The notes under the pieces were generated by a model. That model was not told the origin of the DNA and did not search any database. It saw only the letters and a list, made by a program, of their open reading frames with translations. From positions 6,759,501 through 6,823,500 of the forward strand of contig NZ_JACHIV010000001.1 in the NCBI RefSeq assembly GCF_014203325.1: a stretch of DNA of 64,000 nucleotides. Direction: 5' to 3'. This document shows positions 48,171-63,293 of this stretch, in pieces; position 1 is the first letter of the stretch, and each line of letters begins with the position of its first letter. This stretch comes from Saccharopolyspora gloriosae (GTDB lineage: Bacteria; Actinomycetota; Actinomycetes; Mycobacteriales; Pseudonocardiaceae). The position numbers and the translations under genes were made by a program.

Positions 48171-48482
48171 GGGCGATCCCTCCCCATAGTGCGGAGTCGT
48201 GAGTACGGCCATCGGGTTCGACCGCGGGCGGCGGCGGCAGGTTCCCTTGCCCACTCAAACGAGTGAAGCGGAACTCGGTTGCGTAGGAAAACAAATTACA
48301 CCCGAACGTAGGACGCCCCCGCGCTCAACCGGCCTGGGGGTCACCGGGAGTGCGGGGGCGTGAAGTCCACCCCTGGGGGTCAGGTGGACACTTCTCAGGT
48401 TACTTGGGCGGGATGCGGATTGTCTCTAGCTGCAGAGATCTTTTTTCGCGGGATCGGGGTGAGCCGGGTCCGACCTGGCCAC

Positions 48483-49322
48483 TCACGTGTCGGCCGATCG
48501 CACCAACGCCAGCGCCTGATCGTCGTGGCGCTTCGGTCGAGGCCAGCGAACCCCGTCCGGATCCGACAGCTCCGCGGCCCTGACCTGGTCGAGCACGACC
48601 TCCGGTCCGTCCCGCAGTGCCACGTCCAGCATCGCCGCCCAGTCCGGGTAGATCCCGTAGTCCTGCACGCCGCAGGACACGCCGTCGGTCATCACCATGG
48701 CCGCCGTGACATCGCGTCGGGCCAGCCGGAGGCGGGCCGCGTGCGCTGCGGCCTCCGGGACGGCCTCGGCCACCCAGAAGCCTCCGTCGACGTTGCGCCA
48801 GCGCGAGGTGCGGTCCATCGACGTGCCCAGCGCGTCCCGGTGCCCGGTGCCGAATCCCGCGCCGGAGCGGAGCCGGTCGCGGTATCCGGTACCGGGGCGG
48901 GAGCGCAGCGACGCCAGCTGTTCGTCGAGCACCGGCCGGAGCCCCTCGGTGGTGCTCAGCACGATCGGGCTGTCGGCGAGCACCAGGGCGTCCACGTGCT
49001 CGTCGTCCCAGCGCAGCAGGGAGGCCGTGCTGGACGGGGATGCTCCGGGGCGCAGGTCGAAGGCCGCCACCAGCTCGGCGATGGCGTTCGCGAGCACGTC
49101 GGCCAGGTCGGCTCCCGGCTCCGCCAGCCGGGGCTCCAGCGCCTCCGCGAGCCTGGCCGCGTACCAGCCGCCGCTGCGCGTTCCGGGGTGCAGGGAGGTC
49201 GCGCCGTCGAGCACCGCCACCGCGTTCGGCAGTACCAGCACCACGTCTTCGCTCGGCTTCGCCGCCGAGTCCGGTGGGGTCAGCCGATCTCCCGCCCGTT
49301 CGGCCACCTCGACATTCGCCAT
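48483..49322 (-). CDS. PP2C-like protein phosphatase
   Basis: A 279-residue cytoplasmic protein with the pattern of PPM/PP2C phosphatases: NAVAVLDGATSLHPGTRSGG (metal-binding Asp-Gly), ALVLADSPIVLST, AAMVMTDGVSCGVQDYG (metal Asp) and KRHDDQALALVRSAD (final Asp pair). The usual length is 240-280. No regulatory domain or membrane segment. Such proteins remove phosphate from Ser/Thr of kinase targets; no kinase gene is next to it. Seven bases before the stop of the YczE-like gene, read the same way, so possibly one operon. Confidence 0.75.
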   Translation of the reverse strand: MANVEVAERAGDRLTPPDSAAKPSEDVVLVLPNAVAVLDGATSLHPGTRSGGWYAARLAEALEPRLAEPGADLADVLANAIAELVAAFDLRPGASPSSTASLLRWDDEHVDALVLADSPIVLSTTEGLRPVLDEQLASLRSRPGTGYRDRLRSGAGFGTGHRDALGTSMDRTSRWRNVDGGFWVAEAVPEAAAHAARLRLARRDVTAAMVMTDGVSCGVQDYGIYPDWAAMLDVALRDGPEVVLDQVRAAELSDPDGVRWPRPKRHDDQALALVRSADT

Positions 49323-49329
49323 GCCCCGA

Positions 49330-49965
49330 TTATCGGGTGCCGCGCACGGTCACGAAGGGCAGGAACAGCTGGGTGATCGCTCCGATCGACGTCGCGTACA
49401 GCACGGTTCCGAGGCCCACGCTGCCGCCGAGTCCCCAGCCGACCGCCAGCACGCCGATCTCGATCCCGGTCCGCACCAGCCGCACCGACCAGCCGGTCCG
49501 CGCGTGCAGGCCGGTCATGAGGCCGTCCCTCGGTCCCGGGCCGAGGCGGGCGCCGACGTAGATCGCGGTGGCCAGCCCGTTGAGCACGACCCCGGACACG
49601 ATCAGCGTCAGCTGCCACGGGAGCCACTGCGCCGGTGGCACCAACCCGAGCACCACGTCCACCGACAGCGCGATGACCACGACGTTCGCCACCGTTCCGA
49701 TGCCCGGTCGTTGCCGCAGCGGCACCCAGAGGGCGAGCACGATGACGCTGGTGAGCGCGGTGATCGCGCCGAAGCTCCAGTCCAAGCGATGGGTGAGGCC
49801 GTCGTGGAGCACGTCCCACGGCGACAGGCCGATCTCCGCGCGGACCATCAACGCCATGCTCGTGCCGTACAGCGCCAGGCCGGCGAACAACTGGGCCAGG
49901 CGGGTGGTCGGGCGGACGGTGACGGGTACCGAGGAAAGATCCACCTTGGGTGGTGTTGCAGCCAT
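49330..49965 (-). CDS. YczE/YyaS-family membrane protein
   Basis: A 211-residue membrane protein with ATG 49965. Five to six hydrophobic segments; the start RLAQLFAGLALYGTSMALMVRAEIGLSPWDVLHDG and the later GLATAIYVGARLGPGPRDGLMTGL are typical of the YczE (BCR/YitT-related) family. In many bacteria this gene lies divergent from a MocR regulator, exactly as here, and is thought to be its main target. Substrate unknown; transport of a vitamin B6 or amino-acid related compound is only a suggestion. Confidence 0.85.
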   Translation of the reverse strand: MAATPPKVDLSSVPVTVRPTTRLAQLFAGLALYGTSMALMVRAEIGLSPWDVLHDGLTHRLDWSFGAITALTSVIVLALWVPLRQRPGIGTVANVVVIALSVDVVLGLVPPAQWLPWQLTLIVSGVVLNGLATAIYVGARLGPGPRDGLMTGLHARTGWSVRLVRTGIEIGVLAVGWGLGGSVGLGTVLYATSIGAITQLFLPFVTVRGTR

Positions 49966-49983
49966 GTGTCCGTAGTACCGACT

Positions 49984-50010
49984 GATTGGCCTTGTTTTCG
50001 AGTGCCAATC
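49984..50010. promoter_or_regulatory. operator-like inverted repeat between yczE-like and mocR genes
   Basis: GATTGGC at 49,984-49,990 and GCCAATC at 50,004-50,010 with a 13-base spacer, and a third partial copy ATTGGA at 50,019-50,024 just before the MocR start. A likely MocR binding site. Confidence 0.55.
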
Positions 50011-50026
50011 TGAAACTATTGGACTC

Positions 50027-51463
50027 ATGTCTCGCGTAGTAGGACGAATCGGCGCCCGTGGCATTGCGGAGTTGCTCGGCACCTGGAACTCCGGCCGGGC
50101 CACGTCCACCGGGCTGCACCAGGCGGTGCGGCGGCTGGTGCTCGACGGCAGGCTCCCGCCCGGGACCCGGCTGCCCGCGGAACGCGAGTTCGCCGAGGCG
50201 ATCGGCGTGAGCCGCACCCTCGTCGTGCGGGCGCTCGACCTGCTGCGGGAGGAGGGGTTCGCCGCGAGCAGGCAGGGCTCCGGTTCGTGGGTGCGGCTGC
50301 CGGGGGACCGGGCGAACACCGATCCCGGCGGCTGGCAGCCCGCGACCCCGGATCTGATCAACCTCGCGCAGGCCACGCTGCCCGCGCCGCCGGAGCTCAC
50401 CGAAGCACTGGACCGGGCGCGCTGCCGGTTCCCTGAGCACCTCTGTGGCCACGGCTACCAGGCGTTCGGCCTTCCCGAACTGCGCGAACGCATCGCGGAG
50501 AGCCACACGCGACGCGGGCTGCCCACCTCGCCGCAGCAGATCCTCGTCACCAACGGCGCTCAGCACGGGTTCGCGCTGGTGCTGCGCGCGCTCGTGTCCC
50601 CAGGTGAGCGGGTGCTGGTCGAGCACCCGACCTATCCGAACCCGCTGCAGGCCATTCGCGGCGTGGGGGCCGATGCGGTCGCGGTGCCGATGCTGGCGCA
50701 GGGGTGGGACCTCGACCTGATGGCGGCGACGTTGCAGCAGGCGATGCCGAAGCTGGCCTACCTGATCCCGGACTTCCAGAACCCCACCGGCATCCGGATG
50801 ACCGCGCAGGACCGGGAACGGCTGGTCGCGGTGCTGCGCCGCACCCGCACCACGGCGGTCGTCGACGAGACCCTGATCGACCTGGACCTCACCGGCGGGA
50901 CTCCGCCGCCACCGGTGGCGGCGTTCGGTGAGGACCGGGTGATCACGATCGGGTCCGCGGGGAAGTCCTTCTGGGGCGGGCTGCGGCTCGGCTGGGTCCG
51001 GGCCTCGGAGGACCTGGTGCAGCGGTTGCTGCTGGACCGGGCCGCGGTGGACCTGGGCAGTCCCGTCCTGGAGCAGTTGTTGCTCGCCGAGCTGCTGGCC
51101 GACCCCGAGCCGGTGCTGCGGCGGCGGCGAGCGCACGTGGCCGAGCTGCGGGAGGCGTTGATCGCGGAGCTCGCCGAGCAGTTGCCCACCTGGACGTTCC
51201 GGGTGCCCGACGGCGGCCTGGCGCTGTGGTGCGACCTGGGCGTCCCGGTGAGCAGCAGGCTCGCGGTCGCCGCCGAGCAGCACGGGCTGCGGCTGGTGCC
51301 GGGATCCCGGTTCGCGGTGCGGGGAACGATGGAGCGGTACCTGCGGCTCCCGTACACGCTGCCGGTGGAGCAGCAGCGCGAGGCGGTGCGCCGGTTGGCG
51401 CTGGCGGCGGCCGGGTTCGACGGTGCGCCCGACCCGTGCCCGTGGGACATGGCGATCAGCTGA
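50027..51463 (+). CDS. MocR-type regulator (GntR winged helix fused to aminotransferase domain)
   Basis: A 478-residue PLP-binding transcription factor. N-terminal GntR winged helix at about residues 20-85 (LHQAVRRLVLDGRLPPGTRL, then EFAEAIGVSRTLVVRALDLL). A linker leads to a class I aminotransferase-like domain with NGAQHGFALVLRAL, EHPTYPNPLQAI, FQNPTGIRM and the PLP-binding Lys in TIGSAGKSFWGGLRLGW. MocR/YczR proteins sense PLP or an amino-acid adduct and regulate the divergent membrane protein gene. ATG start 61 bases from the other ATG. A strong terminator follows. Confidence 0.94.
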   Translation: MSRVVGRIGARGIAELLGTWNSGRATSTGLHQAVRRLVLDGRLPPGTRLPAEREFAEAIGVSRTLVVRALDLLREEGFAASRQGSGSWVRLPGDRANTDPGGWQPATPDLINLAQATLPAPPELTEALDRARCRFPEHLCGHGYQAFGLPELRERIAESHTRRGLPTSPQQILVTNGAQHGFALVLRALVSPGERVLVEHPTYPNPLQAIRGVGADAVAVPMLAQGWDLDLMAATLQQAMPKLAYLIPDFQNPTGIRMTAQDRERLVAVLRRTRTTAVVDETLIDLDLTGGTPPPPVAAFGEDRVITIGSAGKSFWGGLRLGWVRASEDLVQRLLLDRAAVDLGSPVLEQLLLAELLADPEPVLRRRRAHVAELREALIAELAEQLPTWTFRVPDGGLALWCDLGVPVSSRLAVAAEQHGLRLVPGSRFAVRGTMERYLRLPYTLPVEQQREAVRRLALAAAGFDGAPDPCPWDMAIS

Positions 51464-51471
51464 CCCCGGAC

Positions 51472-51508
51472 CGCCTTCCGGCACGGCCCCTCGTCGTGCC
51501 GGAAGGCG
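51472..51508 (+). terminator. terminator of the mocR gene
   Basis: Perfect 14-bp stem CGCCTTCCGGCACG / CGTGCCGGAAGGCG with a 9-base loop, 9 bases after the stop. Confidence 0.75.
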
Positions 51509-51713
51509 ACCTCGGGTGTGGTCCCGGCGCCGCAGGGGCAGCGCGACACCGGGACCGGGGCGCTCGGACGGTGATCAGGACAGGTCAAGGTTCCTGTGCA
51601 CGCATGCCGAGAGTCGCCCCCGATACCGGTCCTGCCGGGCGCAGTCGGCTGGACCGGAGACTGCGGTGGGCGTGTTCGCACGCGAGCCCGCGGGCCGGTG
51701 CGATCCGTTCGGA

Positions 51714-52613
51714 TCAGTCAGGTGAGGCGGACGGCTCGATCAGCGCGATGCCGCGCAGCGCGACCGTTTCGACGTGGCCGCCCGCGGCCCGCACGGGGCC
51801 GGGCAGGCAGGGCTGCGTCGGCAGGATGGCGTGCGTCCAGCGCAGGCCGTGGCCCGGGCCGGTGGGTGCGGCGGTCGCGGTGGCGACGGGTGCGGTCGGT
51901 GGGCAGGCAGGCGGCACCGGCTGCGGGGTCGACGTGGTCGGGTGCCCGCGGTCGCCGTGCGCGTGGGGTGCCGGTGAGCCGCGGTCTCGGCTGGCGTGGT
52001 CGGTTCCGGTGCCGTCGGCGAGGTGCTCGGATTCCACTGCGATCGGTCCCGCTGCGGGAGCCGGCGGGAGTGCGGGGTCGGAGAGCCGCGGTGCGGTCGG
52101 CCGAGGAGCTCCACCGTCGTGATCGGAACGCCGCGGAGCGTCGGTGCCCGGGTGTCGTTCCGCGGGGCGCGGTGGGTCGGCGTCGGGTTCGGTGAGCGAG
52201 GACTCGACGGGGTCGGTGACCTCGGGGTCGCCGACCGGGCCGAGCCGGGAGTGGACGTCGGAAGCGATGCCGCCGACGAGTTCGGCGACTTCGTTCGCGG
52301 CGGTCGGTTCGTCGTGGGCGGTGTTCGTCTCCGCGGCGGTGACCGAAGCGCTGCCGGGCTCCGCGGCGGAACCGGGCCGGGTCTCGTCGCCGCCGTCGGA
52401 TTCCGGTTCCGCTTCGACGGCGGGTGCCGTGACGGCGACCGCGGGGACCGTCGAGAGGTGCACCTGCGGTGCGCTCGGCGCCGCCGTGGCGAGACCGGCT
52501 CCCAGCAGCCAAGCGCCGCCGGTGATCCCGGCGACGGCGAGGCTCCGCGCGGTCCACGCGCGCACGAGCGACCAGTGTCTGCGCTGCGCGCAGCTACCGG
52601 TCACCCTCACCAC
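51714..52613 (-). CDS. secreted low-complexity protein (Ala/Pro/Glu-rich)
   Basis: About 299 residues; the start is uncertain among GTG codons at 52,613, 52,610 and 52,604. The N-terminus SLVRAWTARSLAVAGITGG, then AWLLGAGLATAAPSAPQVH, is a clear Sec signal peptide with cleavage after ATAA. The rest is low complexity, first acidic (EAEPESDGGDETRPGSAAEP), then rich in Pro, His and Arg (PAPHAHGDRGHPTTSTPQPV), with one Cys pair near the end (VPPACPPTA, TQPCLPGP). No family recognised. It is divergent from the subtilisin-like protease of the sigma/CHAT cassette and could be part of it or its target. Confidence 0.55.
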   Translation of the reverse strand: MVRVTGSCAQRRHWSLVRAWTARSLAVAGITGGAWLLGAGLATAAPSAPQVHLSTVPAVAVTAPAVEAEPESDGGDETRPGSAAEPGSASVTAAETNTAHDEPTAANEVAELVGGIASDVHSRLGPVGDPEVTDPVESSLTEPDADPPRPAERHPGTDAPRRSDHDGGAPRPTAPRLSDPALPPAPAAGPIAVESEHLADGTGTDHASRDRGSPAPHAHGDRGHPTTSTPQPVPPACPPTAPVATATAAPTGPGHGLRWTHAILPTQPCLPGPVRAAGGHVETVALRGIALIEPSASPD

Positions 52614-52807
52614 CGCCTGTCGGTCGGATCGCGCCGAGCACGAGGGATCAATGGTCCCTCCGCCATAGGATGGGTGGCAGCCCTTCTCGGTATCAACCAC
52701 CCGGATAGGCGGTGTCATACCACCGGTTGCGGCGAATCTCCCTGGCTCGGTGCCACTGGTGTGCCGTCGGATTTCACCCGACAGCATGCCCCAAGTGGAC
52801 GATCATA

Positions 52808-53959
52808 GTGACTGATCGCACAGTGTCTCCTGTGGATCCAACGGTGGGGACCAGCGTGACGCTCGCGGAGCTCGGTGCGCACTGGGCCCGCTACGGGCAC
52901 GACCTGCTGGTGCACGATCCCGGCGGTCCGGGGGAATGCCTGGTCCGCCGGGGTGAGCTCATCGCCCCGCGCGGATCGCTGGACCCGGCGCTGTCCCGGT
53001 TCCGGCGCTGGGTGGACCGCGTCGAGCACGACGACGACCTGCAGCTGGCGCGTGTCCGGCTGCGGACCTCCGAACGGGACCGCTGCCTCGACATCGCGGG
53101 TGAGGTGCCGGAGGTCAGCGCCAACCACGTGCACGTCGGTTCGACGACGATGTTCGGCACTCCGGTGATGTTCGGGACCGGTGCCGATCCGGGTCCGGCG
53201 GCACCCGTGGCGGAGCCCGTCCGGCAGCGGTGGGACGTCACCGTCGCGGTCCTCGACACGGGGTGCGATCCGCATCCGTGGTTCGCGGACCGGGACTGGT
53301 TCGAAGCGGTGCCGGAAGTGCTCGACGCGGACGACGACAACGATCAGGACCGGCAGGCGGGGCACGGCACCTTCGTCTCGGGCGTGCTGCTGCGGCACGC
53401 TCCGGGCGTCACGATCCGGCCGCGCCGGGTGCTGTCCTCGCTGGGGTTCACCGATGATCTGACCGTCGTCGCCGGATTGCGGGCGCTGCGGCGGGAATCC
53501 GGCGCGCGAGGCGAGCGGATCGACGTGGTGCTGCTGACCGCCGGATGCCACACCGCGAGCGATCGGTGCCCGCCCGCGCTGCGCGCCGAGCTCAAGTGCT
53601 TCGGCGGCACCGCGGTGGTGGCCGCCGCCGGCAACCACGGTTCGTCGCGCCCGTTCTGGCCCGCGGCGTTGCCGGAGGTGGTGGGTGTCGCGGCGACGGG
53701 ATCGGACGGCGCGCTCGCCGGGTTCTCGAACTCGGGCGGCTGGGTCGACGCGTGCGCGCCGGGTGTGGACGTGGTGAGCAGCCACGTCCGGCTGCTGCCG
53801 GGAACCGGTGGCACCCGGCGGTACGGATTCGCGCGCTGGAGCGGGACGTCGTTCGCAGCGCCGCAGGTCGCGGCGGGGGTGGCCGCGGCCTTCCGGGACG
53901 GTCGCGATGTGCGGGAGGCGGTGCGCGCCGCCGTTCGGCGTTACCCGTTCGGGGGTTAA
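52808..53959 (+). CDS. S8 subtilisin-like serine protease, no signal peptide
   Basis: A 383-residue protease from GTG 52808. The catalytic triad is complete: Asp in VTVAVLDTGCDPHPWF, His in QAGHGTFVSGVLLRHAPG, Ser in WSGTSFAAPQVAAGVAAAF; the oxyanion Asn is in VVAAAGNHGSS. The first 130 residues form a separate domain (VTLAELGAHWARYGHDLLVH, then VRRGELIAPRGSLDPALSRF) that may bind a partner or act as an inhibitor. No signal peptide or membrane segment, so it should work inside the cell, which is unusual for subtilases. It lies 73 bases before the sigma-factor gene in the same direction and probably belongs to the sigma/CHAT cassette. Confidence 0.9.
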   Translation: MTDRTVSPVDPTVGTSVTLAELGAHWARYGHDLLVHDPGGPGECLVRRGELIAPRGSLDPALSRFRRWVDRVEHDDDLQLARVRLRTSERDRCLDIAGEVPEVSANHVHVGSTTMFGTPVMFGTGADPGPAAPVAEPVRQRWDVTVAVLDTGCDPHPWFADRDWFEAVPEVLDADDDNDQDRQAGHGTFVSGVLLRHAPGVTIRPRRVLSSLGFTDDLTVVAGLRALRRESGARGERIDVVLLTAGCHTASDRCPPALRAELKCFGGTAVVAAAGNHGSSRPFWPAALPEVVGVAATGSDGALAGFSNSGGWVDACAPGVDVVSSHVRLLPGTGGTRRYGFARWSGTSFAAPQVAAGVAAAFRDGRDVREAVRAAVRRYPFGG

Positions 53960-54032
53960 TCGGCCCGCGATGAATCTGTTCGGGGTCCTCGCGCCTCTTA
54001 CTCGTGACCCGATCATGAGGGGAGGGGGCGAG

Positions 54033-54626
54033 ATGCACGCCGTGCACGAGAACTCGGAGCCGGGCGGTGCGCCGGATCTGCTGGAACGCGCCGCGACCGG
54101 TGAGGCGGCGGCCTGGCGGGAGCTGGTGGACCGCAACACCGCGGTGGTGTGGGCCGCTGCGAGGGCGTATTCGCCGACGGCGGCCGACGCGGAGGACGTG
54201 TGCCAGGTGACCTGGCTGTCGCTGGCGGAGAACTTGGGCAACCTGCGCGATCCACGGGCGTTGCCGGGCTGGTTGGCCACGACCGCGCGGCGGGAGGCGG
54301 TGCGGTTGTCGAAGGCCCGGCACCGGGAGTCGCCGGTCGATTGGGACACCGGCATGTTCGACATTCCCGATCACGCCGACGGCCCGGAGGTGAGCGCGTT
54401 GCGTTCGGTCGCGGTGTCCCGGATGTGGCAGGCGTTCGCCGGGATGTCCCGGCGCTGCCAGCAGTTGCTGCGGGTGGTGGCGGTGGCCCCGGACGCCAGC
54501 TACGCGCAGGTGAGCCAGGCGCTCGGCATGCCGAGGGGCAGCATCGGCCCGAAGAAGGGCCGCTGCCTCGCCGCGTTGCGGGAGCGCCTGGCCACCGGCG
54601 GGTGCGTCGAGGAGGCAGCGGGATGA
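54033..54626 (+). CDS. ECF-type sigma factor
   Basis: Directs RNA polymerase to a special promoter set. 197 residues from ATG 54033, behind a GGAGGGGG box; two earlier in-frame ATGs (53,970 and 54,015) lack such a site. Sigma-2 region about 20-95: ERAATGEAAAWRELVDRNTA, AEDVCQVTWLSLAENLG, LPGWLATTARREAVRLSKAR. Sigma-4 region about 135-190: RCQQLLRVVAVAPDASYAQV and LGMPRGSIGPKKGRCLAALR. There is no typical zinc anti-sigma gene next to it; the coupled 162-residue protein may take that place. Its stop overlaps the start of that gene (ATGA). Confidence 0.92.
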   Translation: MHAVHENSEPGGAPDLLERAATGEAAAWRELVDRNTAVVWAAARAYSPTAADAEDVCQVTWLSLAENLGNLRDPRALPGWLATTARREAVRLSKARHRESPVDWDTGMFDIPDHADGPEVSALRSVAVSRMWQAFAGMSRRCQQLLRVVAVAPDASYAQVSQALGMPRGSIGPKKGRCLAALRERLATGGCVEEAAG

Positions 54627-55111
54627 GCCCGCGGATGCCTGCCGAGCTGCGCGTGCTGCGCGACCTGTTCCAGCTCTGCGATCCACCACCCGGGCAGGTG
54701 CGCACCGCGGCGTACGCGGCGGCGGGGCTGGCGCGCGGTCGGGCCGACGCGGCGGCGCTGGAGCTGGTCGGCGACTCCGCCGACGCTCCCGCTCCGGTGC
54801 GGTCGTCCGCGTCCGGGCCGGGTGATCCCGAGCCGCGAGTGCTGACGTTCCTGATGCCGGGCCGGATCGTGGAGCTGGACCTGGTGCCGATGGTGCAGGG
54901 GTTGTTCCGGGCGTCCGGCATGGTGATCAGCCGCGCCGGGCAGGGGCGGCCGGAAGGGGACGTGCTGCTGCGGCATCCCGGTGGCGAGTGCGTCGCGGAG
55001 CTCGACGAGTTCGGCGCGTTCCGCGCGACCGACGTTCCGGCGGGTCCGCTGGGCGTGGTGTTCCGGCAGGTGGGCTCGACGCCCGCCGTGGCGGATTGGC
55101 TGGTCTGTTGA
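54623..55111 (+). CDS. unknown protein of the sigma/CHAT cassette, candidate anti-sigma or protease substrate
   Basis: 162 residues from ATG 54623, overlapping the sigma stop. The N-terminal 40 residues (LRVLRDLFQLCDPPPGQVRT) are helical and could contact the sigma factor; a Pro/Ser/Ala linker follows at about 50-72 (SADAPAPVRSSASGPGDPEP), exposed and likely protease-accessible. The C-terminal 85 residues are beta-rich (VLTFLMPGRIVELDLVPMVQ; DVLLRHPGGECVAELDEFGA; GPLGVVFRQVGSTPAVADWL), like a carboxypeptidase-regulatory or SH3-type fold. No known family. The three genes overlap stop-to-start, so their ratio is fixed. A role as inhibitor cut by the neighbouring proteases is inference. Confidence 0.75.
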   Translation: MSPRMPAELRVLRDLFQLCDPPPGQVRTAAYAAAGLARGRADAAALELVGDSADAPAPVRSSASGPGDPEPRVLTFLMPGRIVELDLVPMVQGLFRASGMVISRAGQGRPEGDVLLRHPGGECVAELDEFGAFRATDVPAGPLGVVFRQVGSTPAVADWLVC

Positions 55112-57732
55112 GCGCCGGGGTGGTGCTGGCGCCGGTCTCGGATCCGATCGCGGCCGCGGTGCGGTGGCGGGAGCAGGTGGGCGCCGACCCGGACGGCGCG
55201 GTTCGGGCCGCGGAGCACTGGCTCGCGCACGCCGGGGATCGGGAACTGCGGGTGTTGGCGCGGCACATCTGCGCGCTGGCGGCCGTGGAGCGGGGCCGGT
55301 CCGCGGAGGCGCGGCAGCACGTGCGCCTCGCGTTGTCGGCGGCGCGGTGCGCGCGGCTCGGGGAGCGGGCCGCGCAGGTGCTGCTGACCTCGGCGTGGAT
55401 CGAGCTGAACCGGGGCGACCCGGACACCGCGTGGCGGCAGTTGGCGGAGGCGTCGGAGCAGCTCACCGGGTTGGACGCGGTCCGGGCCGAGTGCCTGCGC
55501 GGAGTGCTGCTGTGCCACCAGGACCTCTTGGCGGAGGCGGAGGTGGCGCTCTCCGCGGCGTTACCGCGGTTGCTCGAACACCGCGACCACCAGTGGGCCG
55601 CGAACGCCTACGTCGCGCGGGGCTTGGCGCACCTGTACCGCAACGGCCTGGACGCGGCGGAGTCCGACCTCGCGGTGGCGGAGCAGCTGTTCGGTGCCGA
55701 CGGCCGGGACGGCCGTGCCGCGCTGTGCAGGCACAACCGGGGTTGCGTGGCGCTGCGGGCCGGGGACTTGCCGCGTGCGTTGCGGTTGTTCGACGAGGCG
55801 CGGGCCGCGGGGGTCGATCCGGACGAGCACCCGGAGGTCCGCATCGACCGGGCCGAAGCACTGGCGGAGGCCGGGCTGCACGAGCAGGCCAGGGGCGAAC
55901 TGCACCGGGCGGCGGATCGGTTGCGGCGGCTCGGCAGGGAGGCACGGCTCGGCGACACCTGGTTGACGCTCGCCGGATGCGCGCTGCGCGCGGGTGCTCC
56001 GGAGGCGGCGATCGGTCCGGCGCGGCGCGCCGCCAGGTTGTTCCGCTCGCAGCGGCGGCGTTCGTGGGCCGCGCTCGCGGTCGCCACCGAGTGCCAGGCG
56101 CGGCTGCGGGCGGGGCAGGTGTCGCGGTATTCGCTGGCCGCGGCGAAGCGGGCGGGCCACGCGTGCGCGGCGCACGGCTGGACCACGGCCGCCGCCGAGC
56201 TGTGGCTCGCGGCGGGGCGCGAAGCGACCCGGCTGGGCAGGCGGGTCACGGCCCGGACCTTGCTGGAGCTGGCCGCGACCGGCCGTGGTCAGGTTCCGGG
56301 TTCCACCCGGCAGCTCGCCGTGGGCTGGCTCGGGGAGGCGCTGCTCGCGGCGGACGCGGGCGACGACGGCAGGCTGTTCGACAGCTGCCGCCGCGGACTG
56401 CGCGCGGTGGAGAGCTACGCGAGCGGAATCGCCGCCTGGGAACCGCGGATCGAGGCGTTCGGCCTCGCCGAGGAGCTCGGTGGGGTCGCGATCGGTGCGG
56501 CCCTGCGTTCGGAGGACCCGCGACTGGTGCTGCGCTGGGTCGAGCGGTACAGGCTCGGGTCGGCGCACCGGAGAGCGGTGCGCCCTCCCGACGATCCCGA
56601 GCTGGGGTCGGCGCTGGTCCGGCTGCGATCGGCGGTGTCCGGTGCGACCGCGGCCGACGGTTCCAGGCTGCGGACCGCGCTGTCCGAGATCGGTGTCCTG
56701 GAACGACAGGTGCGGGACCGGGCGCTGCTGGTCGCCGGGGGTTCGGCGGGCGAGGCTCAGGTGGCCGGGGTCGACGAGGTGCTGAGCGCGTTGGGCGACG
56801 ACGTGCTGCTCAGCCTGTTCGCGCACGACGGGGAGCTGCACGCGGTCTCCGTCGTCGACGGCCGGCCGCGGCTGCACGACCTCGGGGCCGAGGCGACGGC
56901 GGTGCTCGAAACCCAGCGGCTGCGCTACCTGCTGGCACGGCAGGCCGAGTCGGGCGACGGCCGGGTGGGCGCCGTCTACGCGGGAGGTGCCGCCGAGGCG
57001 GCGGCGGCCGTGCAGCGGCAACTGCTGGCGCCGGTGCTCGCGGCGCTGCCTCCGGGACGGCGGCTGGTGGTGGTGCCGACCGGACCGCTGCACGCGGTGC
57101 CGTGGGCGGCGTTGCCCGCCTGCCGGGGCCGGGGCGTGACGGTGGCGCCGTCGTTGCGGACCTGGCTGCGCGGCCGGGCGGATGCCGGGCTGGACCGGTC
57201 TCCGGGCGAACCGGTGTGGGTGTCCGGTCCGGGGCTGGAGCACGCCGAGCGCGAGGTCGCCGCCCTGCACGCGGCCGGTGGCGGGCGCTTGCTGTCGGGG
57301 ATCGACGCCCGTGCGGAGCGGGTGCTGGACGCCGTGGACGGAGCCCGGATCGCGCACATCGCCGCGCACGGCCGGTTCCGGGACGACCAGCCGCTGCTGT
57401 CCTGCCTGGACCTCGCGGACGGTCCGCTCTACGGCTACGACCTGGACCGGCTGCGGCGCGGACCGCGCACCGTGGTGCTCTCGGCGTGCGAGGCAGGGCG
57501 TTCGGTGGTGGGCCGCGCAGGTCAGCTCACCGGTCTGGCCGCCACCTTGCTCGGGCGCGGCACGGCGACCGTGATCGCCAGCGTCGTCCCCGTGCCCGAC
57601 GAGCGCACCGCGGACGTGATGCTCGCGCTGCACTCCCTGCTGCGCGGCGGCGCACCACCGGCCGAAGCCCTCGCCACCGCTCAAGCCACCTACGGCGAAT
57701 CAGGCTTCCTCTGCCTGGGATACGGAGGCTGA
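55108..57732 (+). CDS. TPR-CHAT caspase-like protease
   Basis: An 874-residue cytoplasmic protein from TTG 55108, which overlaps the preceding stop in a TTGA junction (GTG 55120 is an alternative). Residues about 20-450 are a row of helical TPR-like repeats (AANAYVARGLAHLYRNGLDA, AALCRHNRGCVALRAGDLPR). The last 200 residues are a CHAT domain: LVVVPTGPLHAVPWAALPAC, then catalytic His754 in HIAAHGRFRDDQPLLS and Cys794 in VVLSACEAGRSVVG, then LTGLAATLLGRGTATVIAS. The clan CD protease dyad is thus complete. TPR-CHAT proteins cut specific partners after activation; the sigma-coupled small protein is the obvious candidate. Confidence 0.92.
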   Translation: MSAGVVLAPVSDPIAAAVRWREQVGADPDGAVRAAEHWLAHAGDRELRVLARHICALAAVERGRSAEARQHVRLALSAARCARLGERAAQVLLTSAWIELNRGDPDTAWRQLAEASEQLTGLDAVRAECLRGVLLCHQDLLAEAEVALSAALPRLLEHRDHQWAANAYVARGLAHLYRNGLDAAESDLAVAEQLFGADGRDGRAALCRHNRGCVALRAGDLPRALRLFDEARAAGVDPDEHPEVRIDRAEALAEAGLHEQARGELHRAADRLRRLGREARLGDTWLTLAGCALRAGAPEAAIGPARRAARLFRSQRRRSWAALAVATECQARLRAGQVSRYSLAAAKRAGHACAAHGWTTAAAELWLAAGREATRLGRRVTARTLLELAATGRGQVPGSTRQLAVGWLGEALLAADAGDDGRLFDSCRRGLRAVESYASGIAAWEPRIEAFGLAEELGGVAIGAALRSEDPRLVLRWVERYRLGSAHRRAVRPPDDPELGSALVRLRSAVSGATAADGSRLRTALSEIGVLERQVRDRALLVAGGSAGEAQVAGVDEVLSALGDDVLLSLFAHDGELHAVSVVDGRPRLHDLGAEATAVLETQRLRYLLARQAESGDGRVGAVYAGGAAEAAAAVQRQLLAPVLAALPPGRRLVVVPTGPLHAVPWAALPACRGRGVTVAPSLRTWLRGRADAGLDRSPGEPVWVSGPGLEHAEREVAALHAAGGGRLLSGIDARAERVLDAVDGARIAHIAAHGRFRDDQPLLSCLDLADGPLYGYDLDRLRRGPRTVVLSACEAGRSVVGRAGQLTGLAATLLGRGTATVIASVVPVPDERTADVMLALHSLLRGGAPPAEALATAQATYGESGFLCLGYGG

Positions 57733-57837
57733 CTCGACACCACTAACCCGGAAGCCCGTGGCGTTGCCGCTGACACGAAGCCGTTCACCTGGAAGGACAA
57801 GATCAGAGACCCGCACACCAGGTCAGCAGAGAGGGAG

Positions 57838-59007
57838 TCAGGCGAGGCCGTGCAAGCGGCGGATCGCTTCGTCGAGCACTTCGTCCTGCTTGCAGAACGC
57901 GAAGCGCACCAGGTGCCGCACCGGTTCCGGATCGTCGCAGAACACCTGCACGGGGATCGCCGCGACGCCGACCCGCTCCGGCAGCGCCCGGCACAGCTCG
58001 GCGCCGTCGGTGAACCCGAGCGGCCGGACGTCCGCGCAGATGAAGTAGGTGCCTTCGGAGGCCAGCACGTCCAGGCCGGCCTCGGTGAGGCCCTTGGACA
58101 GCCGGTCCCGCTTGCGTTGCAGGTCGTCGCGCAGGCCCCGGACCCAGTCCAGTTCGTTGCGCAGCGCGTGCGCCACGGCGGGCTGGAACGGGGCGCCGCC
58201 GACGAAGGTGAGGAACTGCTTCGCGGCGCGGATCGCACCGATGAGCTCCGCGGGCCCGCACGCCCAGCCGATCTTCCACCCGGTGGCGCTGAAGCTCTTG
58301 CCGACGCTGGAGATCGTCACGGTGCGCTCGGCCATGCCCGGCAGCGTGGCCAGCGGGGTGTGCGCCCGTCCGTCGAAGAGCAGGTGCTCGTAGACCTCGT
58401 CGGTGATGGCGATCAGGTCGTGCTCGCGGCAGACCTCGGCGATCGCGTGGAGCTCGGCGTCGGTGAGCACCGTGCCGGTCGGGTTGTGCGGCGAGTTCAG
58501 CACCAGCGCGCGGGTCCGCGGACCCGCGGCGGCGCGCAGGGCGTCCAGGTCCAGCTCGAACCGGTGATCGGGTCCTTGCCGGAGCCCGACGGTGCGGCGC
58601 ACCCCGCCCGCCATGGCGACGGCCACCGGGTACGAGTCGTAGTAGGGCTCGATGAGCACGACCTCGTCACCCGGTTCCAGCAGCGCCAGCATCGAGGCGG
58701 TGATGGCCTCGGTGGCGCCGACGGTCACCAGGATCTCGCCGTCCGGGTCGTACTCGATGCCGTAGTGCGCCTGCCGGTGCTCGGAGATCGCGGCCCGCAG
58801 ATCCGGTTCGCCCGCGCCGGGCGGGTACTGGTTGACCCCGTCGGCGATCGCCTGCTGCGCGGCTCGGAGCATGCCCGCGGGACCGTCGGTGTCGGGGAAA
58901 CCTTGGCCGAGGTTGACCGCTCCCGTCTTGCGGGCCAGCTCGGTGATCTCGGCGAAGATCGTCGACGTGAACGGGCGCAACCGGGAGGTGAGGGCGGGAG
59001 TACGCAC
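57838..59007 (-). CDS. dapC: PLP aminotransferase, DapC-like
   Basis: A class I aminotransferase of 389 residues from GTG 59007. It closely follows the pattern of M. tuberculosis DapC (Rv0858c), the N-succinyl-diaminopimelate aminotransferase of lysine and peptidoglycan synthesis: TSRLRPFTSTIFAEITELAR, GAVNLGQGFPDTDGP, VTVGATEAITASMLALLEPG, LNSPHNPTGTVL, ITDEVYEHLLFDGRAHTPL, and the PLP-Lys in VTISSVGKSFSATGWKIGWA. Related enzymes act on methionine or kynurenine, so substrate is by similarity. Divergent from the DUF445 gene. Confidence 0.9.
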   Translation of the reverse strand: MRTPALTSRLRPFTSTIFAEITELARKTGAVNLGQGFPDTDGPAGMLRAAQQAIADGVNQYPPGAGEPDLRAAISEHRQAHYGIEYDPDGEILVTVGATEAITASMLALLEPGDEVVLIEPYYDSYPVAVAMAGGVRRTVGLRQGPDHRFELDLDALRAAAGPRTRALVLNSPHNPTGTVLTDAELHAIAEVCREHDLIAITDEVYEHLLFDGRAHTPLATLPGMAERTVTISSVGKSFSATGWKIGWACGPAELIGAIRAAKQFLTFVGGAPFQPAVAHALRNELDWVRGLRDDLQRKRDRLSKGLTEAGLDVLASEGTYFICADVRPLGFTDGAELCRALPERVGVAAIPVQVFCDDPEPVRHLVRFAFCKQDEVLDEAIRRLHGLA

Positions 59008-59154
59008 GGCTGGAACCCTACCGGCATTTTTCGATCTTGTTCGGTTCGGCGCGAGCGGCGGCGCACCGTGCGCGGGAGGCGACGAACGGTCACCGGGGGA
59101 CGTTTCCGGCACGATCCCACCGGTGTCCCCGTCCGCTGCTGCAACAATCGTGGA

Positions 59155-60420
59155 GTGGCACAGACAGCGGTACCCGATTCGGACGAGCTCAAGCGGCGGG
59201 CGCTGCGACGGATGAAGGCCGTCGCGGGCGGGCTGCTGCTCGCGGCCACGGTGATCTACGTGATCGCCCGCTGGCAGGAGAACGCCGGTGCCGCCGCGTG
59301 GGTCGGCTACGTCCGGGCCGCGGCCGAAGCGGGCATGGTCGGTGCGCTGGCGGACTGGTTCGCGGTGACGGCGCTGTTCCGGCGCCCGCTGGGGCTGCCG
59401 ATCCCGCACACCGCGATCATCCCGACCCGCAAGGACGCGCTGGGCCGCAACCTCGGCGCCTTCGTCGGGGAGAACTTCCTGGCCGAGCCGGTGGTGCGGG
59501 ACAAGCTGGGCCGCGCCGAGATCGGCGCCCGCGTCGGCACCTGGCTCGACGACGAGGCCCACGCCGAGCGGGTCACCTCGGAGCTGGCCACCGCGGTGCG
59601 CGGCGCCGTGCAGGTGCTGCGCGACGACGACGTGCAGGCCGTGCTGGAGCAGTCGGTGCTGCGCAAGGTCCTGGACCAGCAGTGGGGACCGCCGCTGGGG
59701 CGGATCCTGTCGCAGGTGTTCGCCGACGGCACCCACCACAAGCTGGTCGACCTCATCTGCGATCGGGCCTACGACTGGGCGCGGGACAACCACGACACCG
59801 TGCTGCGCGTGGTGAGCCAGCGCGCCCCGTCCTGGTCGCCGCGGTTCTTCGACGGCATGGTCGCCGACAAGATCTACGCGGAGGTGCTGTCGTTCGCGTG
59901 GGCGGTGAAGACCGACCCGGACCACCAGATGCGCAAGGCCGTGGACCGGTTCCTGGTCGACTTCGCCCACGACCTGCAGCACGACCCGAAGACCATGGAG
60001 CGCGCCGAGCAGATCAAGCAGCAGGTGATCGAGCACCCGGAGGTGCAGAACCTCGTCGGCTCGGCCTGGAGCACAGCCAAGAGGATGCTGCTGGACGCCG
60101 CGGAGGACCCGTCCAGCGAGCTGCGGCTGCGGGTGCGCGACGGCCTGCGCGGTTTCGGGCGCAGGCTGGCGACGGAGCCGGAGCTGCGCGGCAAGGTGGA
60201 CGGCTGGGTGGAGGGCGCGGCCGTCTACGTGGTGTCGCACTACCGCACCGAGATCACCACCCTGATCACGGACACCGTGGAGCGCTGGGACGCGGAGGAG
60301 ACCTCCCGCAAGATCGAGCTCCAGGTGGGCCGGGACCTGCAGTTCATCCGCATCAACGGCACCGTCGTGGGCGCCCTGGCCGGGCTGGTGATCTACACGG
60401 TGTCCCAGCTGCTGCTGTGA
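59155..60420 (+). CDS. DUF445 membrane-anchored protein
   Basis: 421 residues from GTG 59155. Two membrane segments: one at about 18-35 (AVAGGLLLAATVIYVIARW) and one at the very end (INGTVVGALAGLVIYTVSQL), with the family block GYVRAAAEAGMVGALADWFAVTALFRRPLGLPIPHTAIIP between. The long middle is helical and charged. DUF445 proteins (YheB/YjiN type) are common in bacteria with no settled role. Convergent with the CGNR regulator. Confidence 0.92.
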   Translation: MAQTAVPDSDELKRRALRRMKAVAGGLLLAATVIYVIARWQENAGAAAWVGYVRAAAEAGMVGALADWFAVTALFRRPLGLPIPHTAIIPTRKDALGRNLGAFVGENFLAEPVVRDKLGRAEIGARVGTWLDDEAHAERVTSELATAVRGAVQVLRDDDVQAVLEQSVLRKVLDQQWGPPLGRILSQVFADGTHHKLVDLICDRAYDWARDNHDTVLRVVSQRAPSWSPRFFDGMVADKIYAEVLSFAWAVKTDPDHQMRKAVDRFLVDFAHDLQHDPKTMERAEQIKQQVIEHPEVQNLVGSAWSTAKRMLLDAAEDPSSELRLRVRDGLRGFGRRLATEPELRGKVDGWVEGAAVYVVSHYRTEITTLITDTVERWDAEETSRKIELQVGRDLQFIRINGTVVGALAGLVIYTVSQLLL

Positions 60421-60963
60421 TCAGCTCTCGGTGGCGTGCCGTTCGCGCCAGGAGCGGGCCTTCTCCCGGTTCCCGCAGACCCGCATCGAGCACCACGTGC
60501 GGGACTTGTTGCGCGAGCGGTCGTAGAACGCCCACAGGCAGTCGTCCGCCGGGCAGATCTTGATCCGGTTCCAGTGGCCGGTGTGCACCAGGTGCACGGA
60601 CGCGGCCAGCACGGTGCCGAGCGCGTCGTGCCCGCCGAGCACCGGCACGCCGTCGTGCAGGACCACGGGCACCGGCCAGGTGATCGTGTCGACGGGTGCG
60701 GGTGCGGACGGGTCGTAGGACACGGCGCCGCGCATGGCGTCGCGGATGCGCCGCGCCGCGCCGCGTTCGCCCGCTACTCCCAGACCGCGTCCGGTGGACC
60801 ACTCCCGCCACTGGTCGGCGGAGTCCAGGACGTCCGTGTCGGCTTCGGCGTCGCAGGTGTTGAGGAAGGCCAGCACCAGCTCGACGTCGCGCTCGGCGTC
60901 CTGGTCCGCGGCGTGGTTCGCAGGGACTCGGTCAGCGACGGCTCTGCTGTTCACGAACACCAT
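60421..60963 (-). CDS. CGNR zinc-finger regulator (ABATE domain)
   Basis: 180 residues from ATG 60963. The N-terminal ABATE-type domain (VLAFLNTCDAEADTDVLDSA to ILHLVHTGHWNRI region, about 25-130) is followed by the zinc finger CPADDCLWAFYDRSRNKSR, then TWCSMRVCGNREKAR, which contains the CGNR signature with four Cys. Such proteins are stress-related regulators found widely in actinobacteria. A palindrome GGTTACTAACC at 61,019-61,029 lies 56 bases upstream and may be an operator. Confidence 0.92.
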   Translation of the reverse strand: MVFVNSRAVADRVPANHAADQDAERDVELVLAFLNTCDAEADTDVLDSADQWREWSTGRGLGVAGERGAARRIRDAMRGAVSYDPSAPAPVDTITWPVPVVLHDGVPVLGGHDALGTVLAASVHLVHTGHWNRIKICPADDCLWAFYDRSRNKSRTWCSMRVCGNREKARSWRERHATES

Positions 60964-61018
60964 CGTAGGCGATTAGCCGGTTGCAGCGTGCGGTGATAAC
61001 TCGTGTACTTCGCAAGAC

Positions 61019-61029
61019 GGTTACTAACC
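61019..61029. promoter_or_regulatory. palindrome upstream of the CGNR gene
   Basis: GGTTACTAACC is a perfect 11-base palindrome in the CGNR gene upstream region; a GTAACC-like half (GGTTAT) follows at 61,047-61,052. Possible autoregulatory site. Confidence 0.35.
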
Positions 61030-61191
61030 CCTGTATATCAGACGATGGTTATGTCACGATGTGGCTCGTCGCAGTGACGGTGCGGGGGCGGCGGCAAGGC
61101 GCTGAGCAGGGCGGCTCCGGCCGTTCGGCCCGCGGCGCCCGATCTCGTTCTCGCGCCTCGCTGAATCCGTTCCCGATGGAGAGGACTCGCC

Positions 61192-61581
61192 ATGAGTACC
61201 GCAGCACCGTTGTCGATCGCGGCGTTCGCGATCGACACCCCCGATCCGCGTGCGCTCGCCGAGTTCTACGGGCGCTTGCTGGGCTGGGAGATCGACGAGG
61301 CCGAGGCGGAGCCCGACTGGGTGGAGCTGGCCGACCCGGCGGGCGGTCCGCCGCTGGCCTTCCAGCTCGATCCGCACTTCGTTCCGCCGACCTGGCCGGA
61401 CCGGACGCGGCCGCAGATGATGCACGTCGACGTGCGGGTGGCGACCTTGGAGGAGGGGCACGAGCGCGCTGTGGGTGCCGGGGCGCGGCTGCTGCCGCAG
61501 CCACCGGATCGGCAGGGGGTGAACTGGCGCGTCTACGCCGATCCCGACGGTCATCCGTTCTGCGTGTGCGCGCAGCAGTGA
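61192..61581 (+). CDS. VOC-family (glyoxalase-like) protein
   Basis: A 129-residue protein of the vicinal oxygen chelate fold; ATG 61192 follows GGAGAGG. Two beta-alpha-beta halves: SIAAFAIDTPDPRALAEFYG with LLGWEIDEAEAEPDWVELAD, and QMMHVDVRVATLEEGHERAV with WRVYADPDGHPFCVC. Metal-site His and Glu positions are only partly kept, so it may be a binding protein or an enzyme on an unknown small molecule, for example a resistance or thiol-related one. Confidence 0.88.
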   Translation: MSTAAPLSIAAFAIDTPDPRALAEFYGRLLGWEIDEAEAEPDWVELADPAGGPPLAFQLDPHFVPPTWPDRTRPQMMHVDVRVATLEEGHERAVGAGARLLPQPPDRQGVNWRVYADPDGHPFCVCAQQ

Positions 61582-61648
61582 TCCGCCGGTAGCGGTGTCG
61601 GTGCTGGTGGCGGCCTTGTGCGGAGTGCCTGCCGTCTCACTCGGAAGG

Positions 61649-61667
61649 TGCAAGCTGACTGCTTGCA
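61649..61667. promoter_or_regulatory. inverted repeat upstream of the XRE gene
   Basis: TGCAAGC at 61,649-61,655 and GCTTGCA at 61,661-61,667, spacer 5 bases, 52 bases before the XRE start; a likely binding site of that regulator. Confidence 0.5.
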
Positions 61668-61718
61668 ATAGTTAGCACTCGTGGCTACCGTGGAACGCAG
61701 CCGGAAGGAGCAAGGGCG

Positions 61719-62138
61719 ATGGAGCGGGTGGACAAGACCGTCAACAAGGCCGTGAACCAAGCGGTCAGCGACCTCGGCGGTTACATCCGGGCGCAACGCA
61801 GCAACGCCCAGATCTCGCTTCGCGAGCTCGCCAAGAGCGCGGGGGTGTCCAACCCCTACCTCAGCCAGATCGAGCGCGGCCTGCGCAAGCCGAGCGCGGA
61901 GATCCTCCAGCAGATCGCCAAGGCGCTGCGCATCTCCGCGGAGGCGCTCTACGTGCAGGCCGGGATCCTGGAGCAGCGCGAGGGCGGCCCGGTGGTGGAC
62001 GCCATCATCGCCGACCCCGATCTGGGCGAGCGGCAGAAGCAGGTCCTGCTCGACATCTACGCCTCGTTCCGGCGCGAACACGACGGCCTCGCCGACGGGC
62101 CGGACCAGCACCGCACCGATTCCCCCGATGAGGAGTGA
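61719..62138 (+). CDS. XRE-family regulator of the hbhA cluster
   Basis: 139 residues from ATG 61719. Helix-turn-helix at about 20-80: LGGYIRAQRSNAQISLRELA, SAGVSNPYLSQIERGLRKPS, ILQQIAKALRISAEALYVQA. The tail is acidic. It matches in size, domain and place the M. tuberculosis gene Rv0474, which also lies just before hbhA. A TGCAAGC/GCTTGCA repeat precedes it, suggesting autoregulation. Its stop overlaps a GTG six bases before the ATG of the HbhA-like gene. Confidence 0.9.
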   Translation: MERVDKTVNKAVNQAVSDLGGYIRAQRSNAQISLRELAKSAGVSNPYLSQIERGLRKPSAEILQQIAKALRISAEALYVQAGILEQREGGPVVDAIIADPDLGERQKQVLLDIYASFRREHDGLADGPDQHRTDSPDEE

Positions 62139-62143
62139 GCATC

Positions 62144-62854
62144 ATGCCGACGAACGAGAACAGCACGAAGACCCCCGGTCAGGCGCAGTCCGGTCCCGCG
62201 CTCGGCGAAGCCGCCGAGCAGGCGCGCACCCCGCTGCTCGCCGCGCTCGGCGCCGGTGACCTCGCCGCGCAGACCATCGCCGACACGCTCAGCAAGCTCC
62301 GCGGCCGGTTGAACGAGGGTGCGGAGTCGGCGCGCACCGGGGTCAACGAGCTGCCCCACGACCTCAAGGAGCGCTTCGACCCGGCGGAGCTGCGCAAGCG
62401 CGTCGACGCCTACACGCAGTCCGCCGTGCAGCTCTACGGCTACCTCGCCGACCGGGGTGAGACGACCTTCGAGCGCATCCAGGCCCAGCCCCAGGTCAAG
62501 CAGGCGTGGAGCCAGCTGGAGCAGGTGCAGGGCCGGGTGGACACCGCCGTCGGGGACGCGCGGGTCATCGCCGACGACGTGCTGGGCAAGGTCACCCGGA
62601 CCACCCGCTCCTGGGGTGAGAAGGCCGCGGAGACCACGGAGAAGACCACGACCGTCGCGGCCGAGAAGGTCCGCGAGACGGCGGCCGACGTGGCGGACGC
62701 GGTCGAGGAGACCGGTTCGGACGCGGCGACCGCGACCCGCAGCACCAGCCGCAAGGCCGCCAACCGCACCGCTGCGGCGAAGACCGCGCCGAAGACCACC
62801 GGCGCAGCGAAGACCGGCACCGCGAAGAAGGCGACCGGCAAGTCCGAGAACTGA
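62144..62854 (+). CDS. hbhA: HbhA-like heparin-binding protein
   Basis: 236 residues from ATG 62144, behind AGGAG. The first 170 residues are helical with coiled-coil spacing (LLAALGAGDLAAQTIADTLS; LKERFDPAELRKRVDAYTQS; VKQAWSQLEQVQGRVDTAVG). The C-terminal 60 residues are rich in Lys and Ala (RKAANRTAAAKTAPKTTGAA), the heparin-binding tail of mycobacterial HbhA. No signal peptide, as in HbhA. In mycobacteria it is an adhesin and lipid-associated protein; in a soil actinomycete a role at the cell pole or envelope is more likely (inference). A terminator follows. Confidence 0.87.
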   Translation: MPTNENSTKTPGQAQSGPALGEAAEQARTPLLAALGAGDLAAQTIADTLSKLRGRLNEGAESARTGVNELPHDLKERFDPAELRKRVDAYTQSAVQLYGYLADRGETTFERIQAQPQVKQAWSQLEQVQGRVDTAVGDARVIADDVLGKVTRTTRSWGEKAAETTEKTTTVAAEKVRETAADVADAVEETGSDAATATRSTSRKAANRTAAAKTAPKTTGAAKTGTAKKATGKSEN

Positions 62855-62908
62855 GCCGCGTCCGCGGACTCGGCCGCGAGCAGCGGCGGGTTCGGGCGCG
62901 GTACGACC

Positions 62909-62947
62909 GAGCGGGACCCCCGGGACGGCTACTCCGGGGTCCCGCTC
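62909..62947 (+). terminator. terminator after the hbhA-like gene
   Basis: Perfect 12-bp stem GAGCGGGACCCC / GGGGTCCCGCTC with a 15-base loop, directly before the DUF2516 start. Confidence 0.7.
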
Positions 62948-62964
62948 ACACGTAGGGTGGAGTG

Positions 62965-63282: not shown

Positions 63283-63293
63283 CCGAGGGCTCG

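What the first reader, a model, noticed from the sequence alone, without database searches (positions are those of the whole stretch)
52808..57732. CRISPR-free protease/sigma cassette: subtilase, ECF sigma factor, small unknown protein and TPR-CHAT protease
Seen: a signal-less subtilase with a full triad, then an ECF sigma factor, a 162-residue unknown protein and an 874-residue TPR-CHAT protease with His754/Cys794; the last three genes overlap (ATGA and TTGA). Known: in type III-E CRISPR, the TPR-CHAT protease Csx29 cuts Csx30, which relieves inhibition of the sigma factor CASP-sigma (Craspase). Inference: this chromosomal cassette uses the same logic without CRISPR. A trigger sensed by the TPR part would activate CHAT, which cuts the 162-residue protein and frees the sigma factor to start a stress or defence programme; the internal subtilase would mature or amplify the signal. 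The similarity is in layout, not proven homology.
Basis: partly seen in the sequence, partly recalled or inferred. Interest (0 to 1): 0.85.

Follow-up and report, generated by a model that had tools for sequence, protein, structure and literature searches.

The report
Caspase-like protease and sigma factor cassette
A four-gene bacterial switch, in which a caspase-like protease probably cuts a small inhibitor to free a transcription factor, is spread across the actinobacteria without CRISPR beside it; its gene neighbourhood has been noted in print before, but its mechanism is untested.

Summary
In detail: 52808-57732 encodes a signal-less S8 subtilase, an ECF sigma factor, a 162-residue protein (here SM) and a TPR-CHAT protease; the last three genes overlap. 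The host is a Saccharopolyspora. SM follows sigma on the same strand in 78 of 78 unique loci holding both, while S8 and CHAT move and flip. This context is not new: a review (PMC8999054, passages) reports carboxypeptidase, subtilase and CHAT proteins around ECF54 sigma factors and proposes proteolysis without an anti-sigma factor. What I add: SM matches no peptidase; it is modelled as two helices plus an Ig-like beta-sandwich; it sits where anti-sigma factors sit; and its low-confidence linker holds an arginine (R60) kept in 81 of 84 sequences, a candidate cleavage site. Best reading: CHAT cuts SM to release sigma, like Craspase but without CRISPR. Binding, cleavage, trigger and regulon are untested.

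The parts
52691..52716 (+). conserved block upstream of the S8 gene (TATCAACC...GGCGGTGTC); candidate promoter, not resolved
   Evidence: alignment of upstream regions of 16 loci of the window's family
52808..53959 (+). S8 subtilase without signal peptide, 383 aa, triad D150/H186/S348; N-terminal ~140 residues match no Pfam family
   Evidence: Pfam PF00082 E 2.6e-22 over residues 144-360; triad invariant in 12 aligned sequences
53969..54001 (+). conserved block between S8 stop and sigma start (TGAATC ... CTCTTA); candidate internal promoter, not resolved
   Evidence: alignment of 16 loci
54033..54626 (+). ECF sigma factor, 197 aa, regions 2 and 4 only (ECF54-like by context)
   Evidence: alternative upstream ATG 53970
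54623..55111 (+). SM, 162 aa: two N-terminal helices (low confidence), linker, C-terminal Ig-like/CarboxypepD_reg-like beta-sandwich; candidate sigma inhibitor
54800..54802 (+). codon of SM Arg60, candidate cleavage (P1) residue in the linker
   Evidence: Arg in 81 of 84 SM sequences; model pLDDT below 50 for residues 56-66
55108..57732 (+). TPR-CHAT caspase-like protease, 874 aa, His754/Cys794
   Evidence: PF12770 E 2.9e-35, sub-threshold TPR matches; H754 and C794 invariant in 15 aligned sequences

Best explanation
A CRISPR-free, protease-gated sigma switch. At rest SM, made by translational coupling right after sigma, holds the ECF sigma factor inactive through its N-terminal helices (inferred). 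The TPR arm of the CHAT protein senses an unknown internal trigger and switches on the caspase-like domain (inferred from Csx29). CHAT cuts SM in the linker, most likely after the conserved Arg60, splitting helices from beta-sandwich and freeing sigma (inferred). Sigma then transcribes its regulon, perhaps including its own operon (not shown). S8 is an accessory second protease that may remove the SM remnant or act downstream (guess). Shown here: conserved unit, fixed sigma-SM order, intact catalytic residues, SM architecture by model, Arg60 conservation. It works like Craspase (Csx29-Csx30-CASP-sigma), but is not a member of that CRISPR family.
For: Co-occurrence after choosing by CHAT: sigma, SM and S8 in 18 of 18 loci (17 of the 25 CHAT-positive genomes without an SM hit, plus G234), and sigma+SM 18 of 20, S8 14 of 20 in the family (picked by me to spread over genera, 2 of the 20 repeat earlier loci). 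In the same 396 phylum genomes, own included: SM hit in 26, CHAT in 47, both in 22, Fisher P 2.5e-19, uncorrected for kinship. SM is 3' of sigma on the same strand, 5 to 421 bases (median 47) between matched stretches, in 78 of 78 unique loci with both; the four genes occur in eight plain orders and two compound ones. Invariant CHAT His/Cys and S8 triad. Extra SM copies beside S8/CHAT without a second sigma (L098, L114) fit SM as a protease partner. Arg60 in 81 of 84 SMs, next residue G/S/A/T in 82 of 84, amid variable, gapped columns of low model confidence. Sigma has no regulatory extension. Precedent: Csx29 cuts Csx30, which inhibits CASP-sigma (PMC10028731, passages).
Against: No binding or cleavage datum. 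Arg60 could be structural. Csx30 is cut in a loop of its C-terminal domain, not in the inter-domain linker, and no single residue was essential by alanine substitution there, so the parallel is loose. Distance correlations over 69 loci (pairs with too few shared columns dropped; pairs not independent) tie sigma to the SM N-terminal part only slightly more than to its C-terminal part (partial rank 0.26 against 0.17) and give SM-N against the CHAT domain -0.14. Seven of 78 unique sigma-SM loci have no CHAT within the stretch, and 2 of 28 SM genomes had no CHAT match at E 1e-10, both drafts of hundreds of contigs. Three loci (L069, L072, L082) had SM without a sigma gene found. The published proposal is that proteases degrade sigma itself.
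Confidence: 0.5

Rival explanations
1. The published ECF54 proposal: there is no anti-sigma factor; proteases such as the subtilase and CHAT keep the system off by degrading the sigma factor itself, and SM is only an adaptor (probably the 'carboxypeptidase' of the old description).
For: Review PMC8999054 section 3.3 (passages), citing Casas-Pastor 2021 and Huang 2015 (neither held).
Against: SM matches no peptidase family; its only recurrent Pfam match is the non-catalytic CarboxypepD_reg domain, 18 of 29 members at E 0.1 or better, best 1.6e-7. It sits in the anti-sigma position in every unique locus with both genes (78 of 78).
Confidence: 0.17
2. A caspase-like cell-death or damage cascade: CHAT activates the subtilase, or the reverse, and these two act on many cell proteins; sigma and SM only control expression of the cassette.
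For: S8 and CHAT can stand as a pair away from sigma-SM (9 loci: L107-L111, L113, L119, L130, L138), so they form a module of their own; the S8 linkers carry tandem repeats in several lineages.
Against: No S8 was found in 11 unique sigma-SM-CHAT loci (L024, L026, L027, L077, L081, L129, L135, L143-L146; L081 begins at a contig end). No toxicity data.
Confidence: 0.2
3. SM binds sigma, but is released by a ligand or by the TPR arm acting as a partner-switching platform, and CHAT proteolysis is secondary.
For: The sigma-SM pair is also kept where no CHAT is nearby (7 loci); a beta-sandwich could bind a ligand (weak generic folds only).
Against: CHAT catalytic residues are invariant, and SM-bearing genomes mostly hold a CHAT match (26 of 28 at E 1e-10 or better).
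Confidence: 0.1

Closest known systems
ECF54 sigma-factor group (Casas-Pastor 2021, not held; described in PMC8999054, passages)
   Same: ECF sigma with subtilase, CHAT and 'carboxypeptidase' proteins in its genetic context; proteolytic control proposed
   Different: No anti-sigma factor was assigned there; here SM is read as the inhibitor and matches no peptidase. Membership by the group's own model could not be tested
Craspase / type III-E CASP system (Cas7-11, Csx29, Csx30, CASP-sigma)
   Same: TPR-CHAT protease, a partner protein and an ECF sigma factor encoded together; distant CHAT homology by profile
   Different: No CRISPR array beside the cassette; SM (162 aa) has no detected similarity to Csx30 (565 residues in PMC10028731); an S8 protease is added; a different trigger is required
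CalpL-CalpT-CalpS (type III CRISPR SAVED-Lon protease, anti-sigma, sigma; mechanism recalled; PMC11417357 on CalpL seen as search listing with the start of its abstract)
   Same: Protease cuts an inhibitor to free an ECF sigma (recalled)
   Different: Lon protease triggered by cyclic oligoadenylate; CRISPR-linked
RseA/DegS and RsiW-type regulated proteolysis of anti-sigma factors (mentioned in PMC10028731)
   Same: Proteolytic release of a sigma factor
   Different: Membrane-bound anti-sigma and envelope signal; here no membrane segment was noticed in any of the four proteins (by eye)

Membership tests
ECF54 group | ECF sigma with region 2 and 4 | tested here: met
   Sigma70_r2 E 7.6e-11, TIGR02937 sigma70-ECF E 7.9e-17 over its cut-off; region 4 weak, E 0.11
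ECF54 group | subtilase, CHAT and carboxypeptidase-domain proteins conserved in the neighbourhood | tested here: met
   that the authors' 'carboxypeptidase' is the CarboxypepD_reg-like domain of SM is my inference
ECF54 group | sequence match to the group's own HMM or subtree | not testable with these tools
   the classification paper and its models are not held
Craspase (type III-E) | TPR repeats plus CHAT domain with catalytic His and Cys | tested here: met
   the CHAT profile matches chains named TPR-CHAT at E 0.0048 and Csx29 at E 0.021
Craspase (type III-E) | CHAT protein is Csx29 by the curated model NF041237 | tested here: not met
   window protein: no match at E 0.001; 2 of 15 aligned sequences match, best E 1.3e-5
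Craspase (type III-E) | encoded beside a CRISPR array | tested here: not met
   no repeat family of three or more copies in 46000-64000; a Cas1 match lies 2.8 Mb away
Craspase (type III-E) | encoded with Cas7-11 | not tested
   Cas7-11 itself was not searched for, in the window, the genome or the related loci
Craspase (type III-E) | partner protein homologous to Csx30 | tested here: inconclusive
   SM profile against PDB chains: 4 matches at E up to 10, none named Csx30
Class I / zinc anti-sigma factors | match to a known anti-sigma domain | tested here: not met
   no anti-sigma family in Pfam (29 members, E up to 0.1) or NCBIfam (E up to 0.01)
Carboxypeptidases | peptidase domain | tested here: not met
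   no peptidase family among the 8 Pfam families matched; the regulatory-like domain matches 18 of 29 members
Known anti-phage systems (PADLOC) | match to a defence protein model | tested here: inconclusive
   partial BovA (E 2.2e-4, CHAT) and subtilase (E 2.8e-8, S8) matches, IetS weaker

The most novel reading that the evidence does not exclude
Craspase is one CRISPR-recruited branch of a much wider CRISPR-free class: across Actinomycetota a TPR-CHAT caspase cuts SM after a conserved linker arginine to release an ECF sigma factor, with a subtilase as second protease, so that caspase-controlled transcription is a general bacterial signalling mode.
Probability: 0.3. Interest if true: 0.85.

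Novelty: new variant of a known kind. Interest (0 to 1): 0.6.

Why it matters
If true, caspase-like proteolysis gating transcription is a widespread actinobacterial mechanism and not a CRISPR curiosity; in the window's family 129 of 200 genomes hold the CHAT, with up to five matches in one genome. It would give an entire ECF group (ECF54) its missing inhibitor and trigger-reading protease, and offers a concrete residue (SM Arg60) that makes the mechanism testable in one experiment.

Tried and rejected
Chance neighbourhood: rejected by selection on CHAT; the own genome has 9 S8 places, about 2% chance of one per 16 kb.

Mobile defence island: not supported for the window's family, whose flanking genes recur in L022-L026; position varies elsewhere. 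In the 36 loci clustered, gene families other than the four that were shared by three or more of the 26 divergent loci were confined to related genomes (L022-L027 of one order; L078, L079, L080 and L083 of one genus). Cas genes were not specifically sought in the related loci.

AlphaFold model of CHAT: run by mistake without an alignment, mean pLDDT 45.1, not used. Complexes could not be predicted.

Promoter of sigma: conserved blocks seen, but no motif that I found convincing shared between the S8 and sigma upstream regions or with other lineages; no regulon search made. The sigma-70 consensus scan gave one minus-strand match and no terminator.

Co-evolution by distances: weak, inconclusive; a first run failed.

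Literature: 10 searches. Of 3 papers holding 'ECF54' only the review PMC8999054 is about sigma factors, by title, and by titles and abstract starts no listed paper joins these four genes experimentally; subscription papers and preprints are not covered. Passage searches in PMC7159879, PMC7406223 and PMC8103513 gave nothing on this cassette.

Plasmid records: Nonomuraea gerenzanensis has two four-gene loci (L124, L125). Three other plasmid sigma hits (L122, L123, L126) had none of the other three families above my cut-offs, though L123 (Miltoncostaea) has an annotated S8 next to sigma. A further plasmid hit (H2, Streptomyces chartreusis, CHAT part only) was not followed.

Cut-offs: SM 25, CHAT 60, S8 120, sigma 110 bits by profiles built from my own alignments. 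SM hits G224, G234 and G246 are weak and lie in long other frames.

Full report
WHAT IS THERE. The window is part of a 6.83 Mb one-contig genome. Named relatives of SM are Saccharopolyspora (10 loci) and Halosaccharopolyspora (1), and a genome marked as the same genus (G001) has the contig length of Saccharopolyspora sp. NFXS83, so the host is a Saccharopolyspora. The cassette, all + strand: S8 52808-53959, ECF sigma 54033-54626, SM 54623-55111, TPR-CHAT 55108-57732. Families: Peptidase_S8 (E 2.6e-22), Sigma70_r2 (7.6e-11), CHAT (2.9e-35) with sub-threshold TPR matches; SM only a weak CarboxypepD_reg hit (E 0.07). The genome has 3 CHAT-domain places, of which only this one matches by the whole protein.

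CONSERVATION. A search with SM found it in 12 of 41 genomes, the window's own included. The 11 others, fetched, all carry sigma, SM and CHAT in that order, and 8 of the 11 also S8 (L024, L026 and L027 lack an S8 hit). A profile of SM found matches in 26 of 396 genomes across the phylum, own included, three of them weak and inside long other frames (G224, G234, G246; only 9 candidates per genome were scored). Of 20 of those loci fetched, profiles found sigma in 17, CHAT in 10 and S8 in 8.

I then turned the test round and chose by CHAT. The CHAT profile matched 47 of the same 396 genomes at E 1e-60 or better (2 candidates per genome scored); 22 of these were among the 26 SM genomes, against 25 of the other 370 (Fisher P 2.5e-19, not corrected for kinship). 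Of the 25 CHAT genomes without an SM hit I fetched 17, plus G234: 18 of 18 loci hold SM, sigma and S8 within 8 kb. So the first SM count was too low, and the association is stronger than the table shows. The eight not fetched were G191, G223, G308, G318, G365, G383, G401 and G409. Within the window's own family the CHAT profile matched 129 of 200 genomes, own included, with up to five matches in one genome.

ARRANGEMENT. After removing repeats, 95 fetched loci were classified: 77 (the window counted as one) and 18; 78 of them hold both sigma and SM (62 and 16). SM lies 3' of sigma on the same strand in all 78, with 5 to 421 bases (median 47) between the matched stretches; I did not check each gap for a small extra gene. 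Of the 78, 60 hold all four genes, 11 lack S8 only, 7 have no CHAT in the stretch fetched. The four genes occur in eight plain orders and two compound ones. Nine loci are an S8-CHAT pair without sigma-SM nearby; seven of these come from genomes chosen because they carry SM elsewhere. Three loci had SM without sigma, three plasmid loci sigma alone, one CHAT alone and one S8 alone. L098 and L114 hold extra SM copies beside S8/CHAT without a second sigma. I read this as two modules, sigma-SM and S8-CHAT, usually kept together, with SM as the link.

THE PROTEASES. CHAT H754 and C794 are invariant in the 15 aligned sequences, the S8 triad in 12. The CHAT-domain profile matches solved chains named CHAT domain protein (E 5.3e-5 to 0.0012), TPR-CHAT (0.0048) and Csx29 (0.021) and, best, the CHAT protein 8rot (E 2.7e-11). 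So Csx29 is a distant relative of this domain; the window's protein is not Csx29 by the curated model.

PUBLISHED KNOWLEDGE. A 2022 review states that for group ECF54 proteolytic control without an anti-sigma factor has been proposed because carboxypeptidase, subtilase and CHAT proteins are conserved in its context (PMC8999054, passages). That is this cassette by context. The two source papers were not held. The Craspase work shows Csx29 cutting Csx30, supports Csx30 inhibiting CASP-sigma and cleavage relieving it; the cut falls in a loop of the Csx30 C-terminal domain, and how it frees sigma was left open (PMC10028731, passages).

MECHANISM AND LIMITS. Shown: a conserved unit, locked sigma-SM order, intact catalytic residues, no peptidase match for SM, the conserved linker Arg. 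Inferred: SM inhibits sigma; the TPR arm senses a trigger; CHAT cuts SM; S8 is accessory. Against: the weak coevolution signal, sigma-SM loci without CHAT near (7 of 78), two of 28 SM genomes with no CHAT match (G307, G424; both drafts in hundreds of contigs), and no experiment. Conserved upstream blocks exist, but I could not define sigma's promoter.

VERDICT. The points that I did not find in print, within the ten searches named under Tried and rejected, are SM as the likely inhibitor and Arg60 as a testable cut site.

Noticed in passing
window 6000-12400: A stretch of low GC (0.575-0.60 against mostly 0.67-0.75 from 14 kb on) with a Vsr-type mismatch endonuclease frame at 11414-12382 (E 4.2e-20); may be an acquired restriction-modification-like island.
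   Followed up: partly
L070, L076, L087, L088 (S8 genes): The linker between N-terminal and catalytic parts of the S8 proteins holds short tandem repeats (NPAYQG-like, HPFWGG-like) that differ by lineage; one member of that alignment matches a collagen-repeat model.
   Followed up: no
window 52785-52838: Two similar GTGTCC..TGTGGA-like stretches about 34 bases apart, out of frame with each other, at the start of the S8 gene, clearer in other Saccharopolyspora than in the window.
   Followed up: no
L114:4078-15377: A compound locus with S8, SM, CHAT, SM, S8, CHAT, sigma, SM in one row: three SM for one sigma.
   Followed up: partly
L074:10513-14192: The CHAT gene of this locus is broken into several frames while S8, sigma and SM give single matches.
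   Followed up: no
L123:8007-9403: Miltoncostaea oceani plasmid: a related sigma gene directly followed by an annotated S8 peptidase, with no SM or CHAT above my cut-offs.
   Followed up: no
window 40656-43859 and 14753-18124: An arabinosyltransferase (EmbC-like domains) and a P450-reductase fusion.
   Followed up: no
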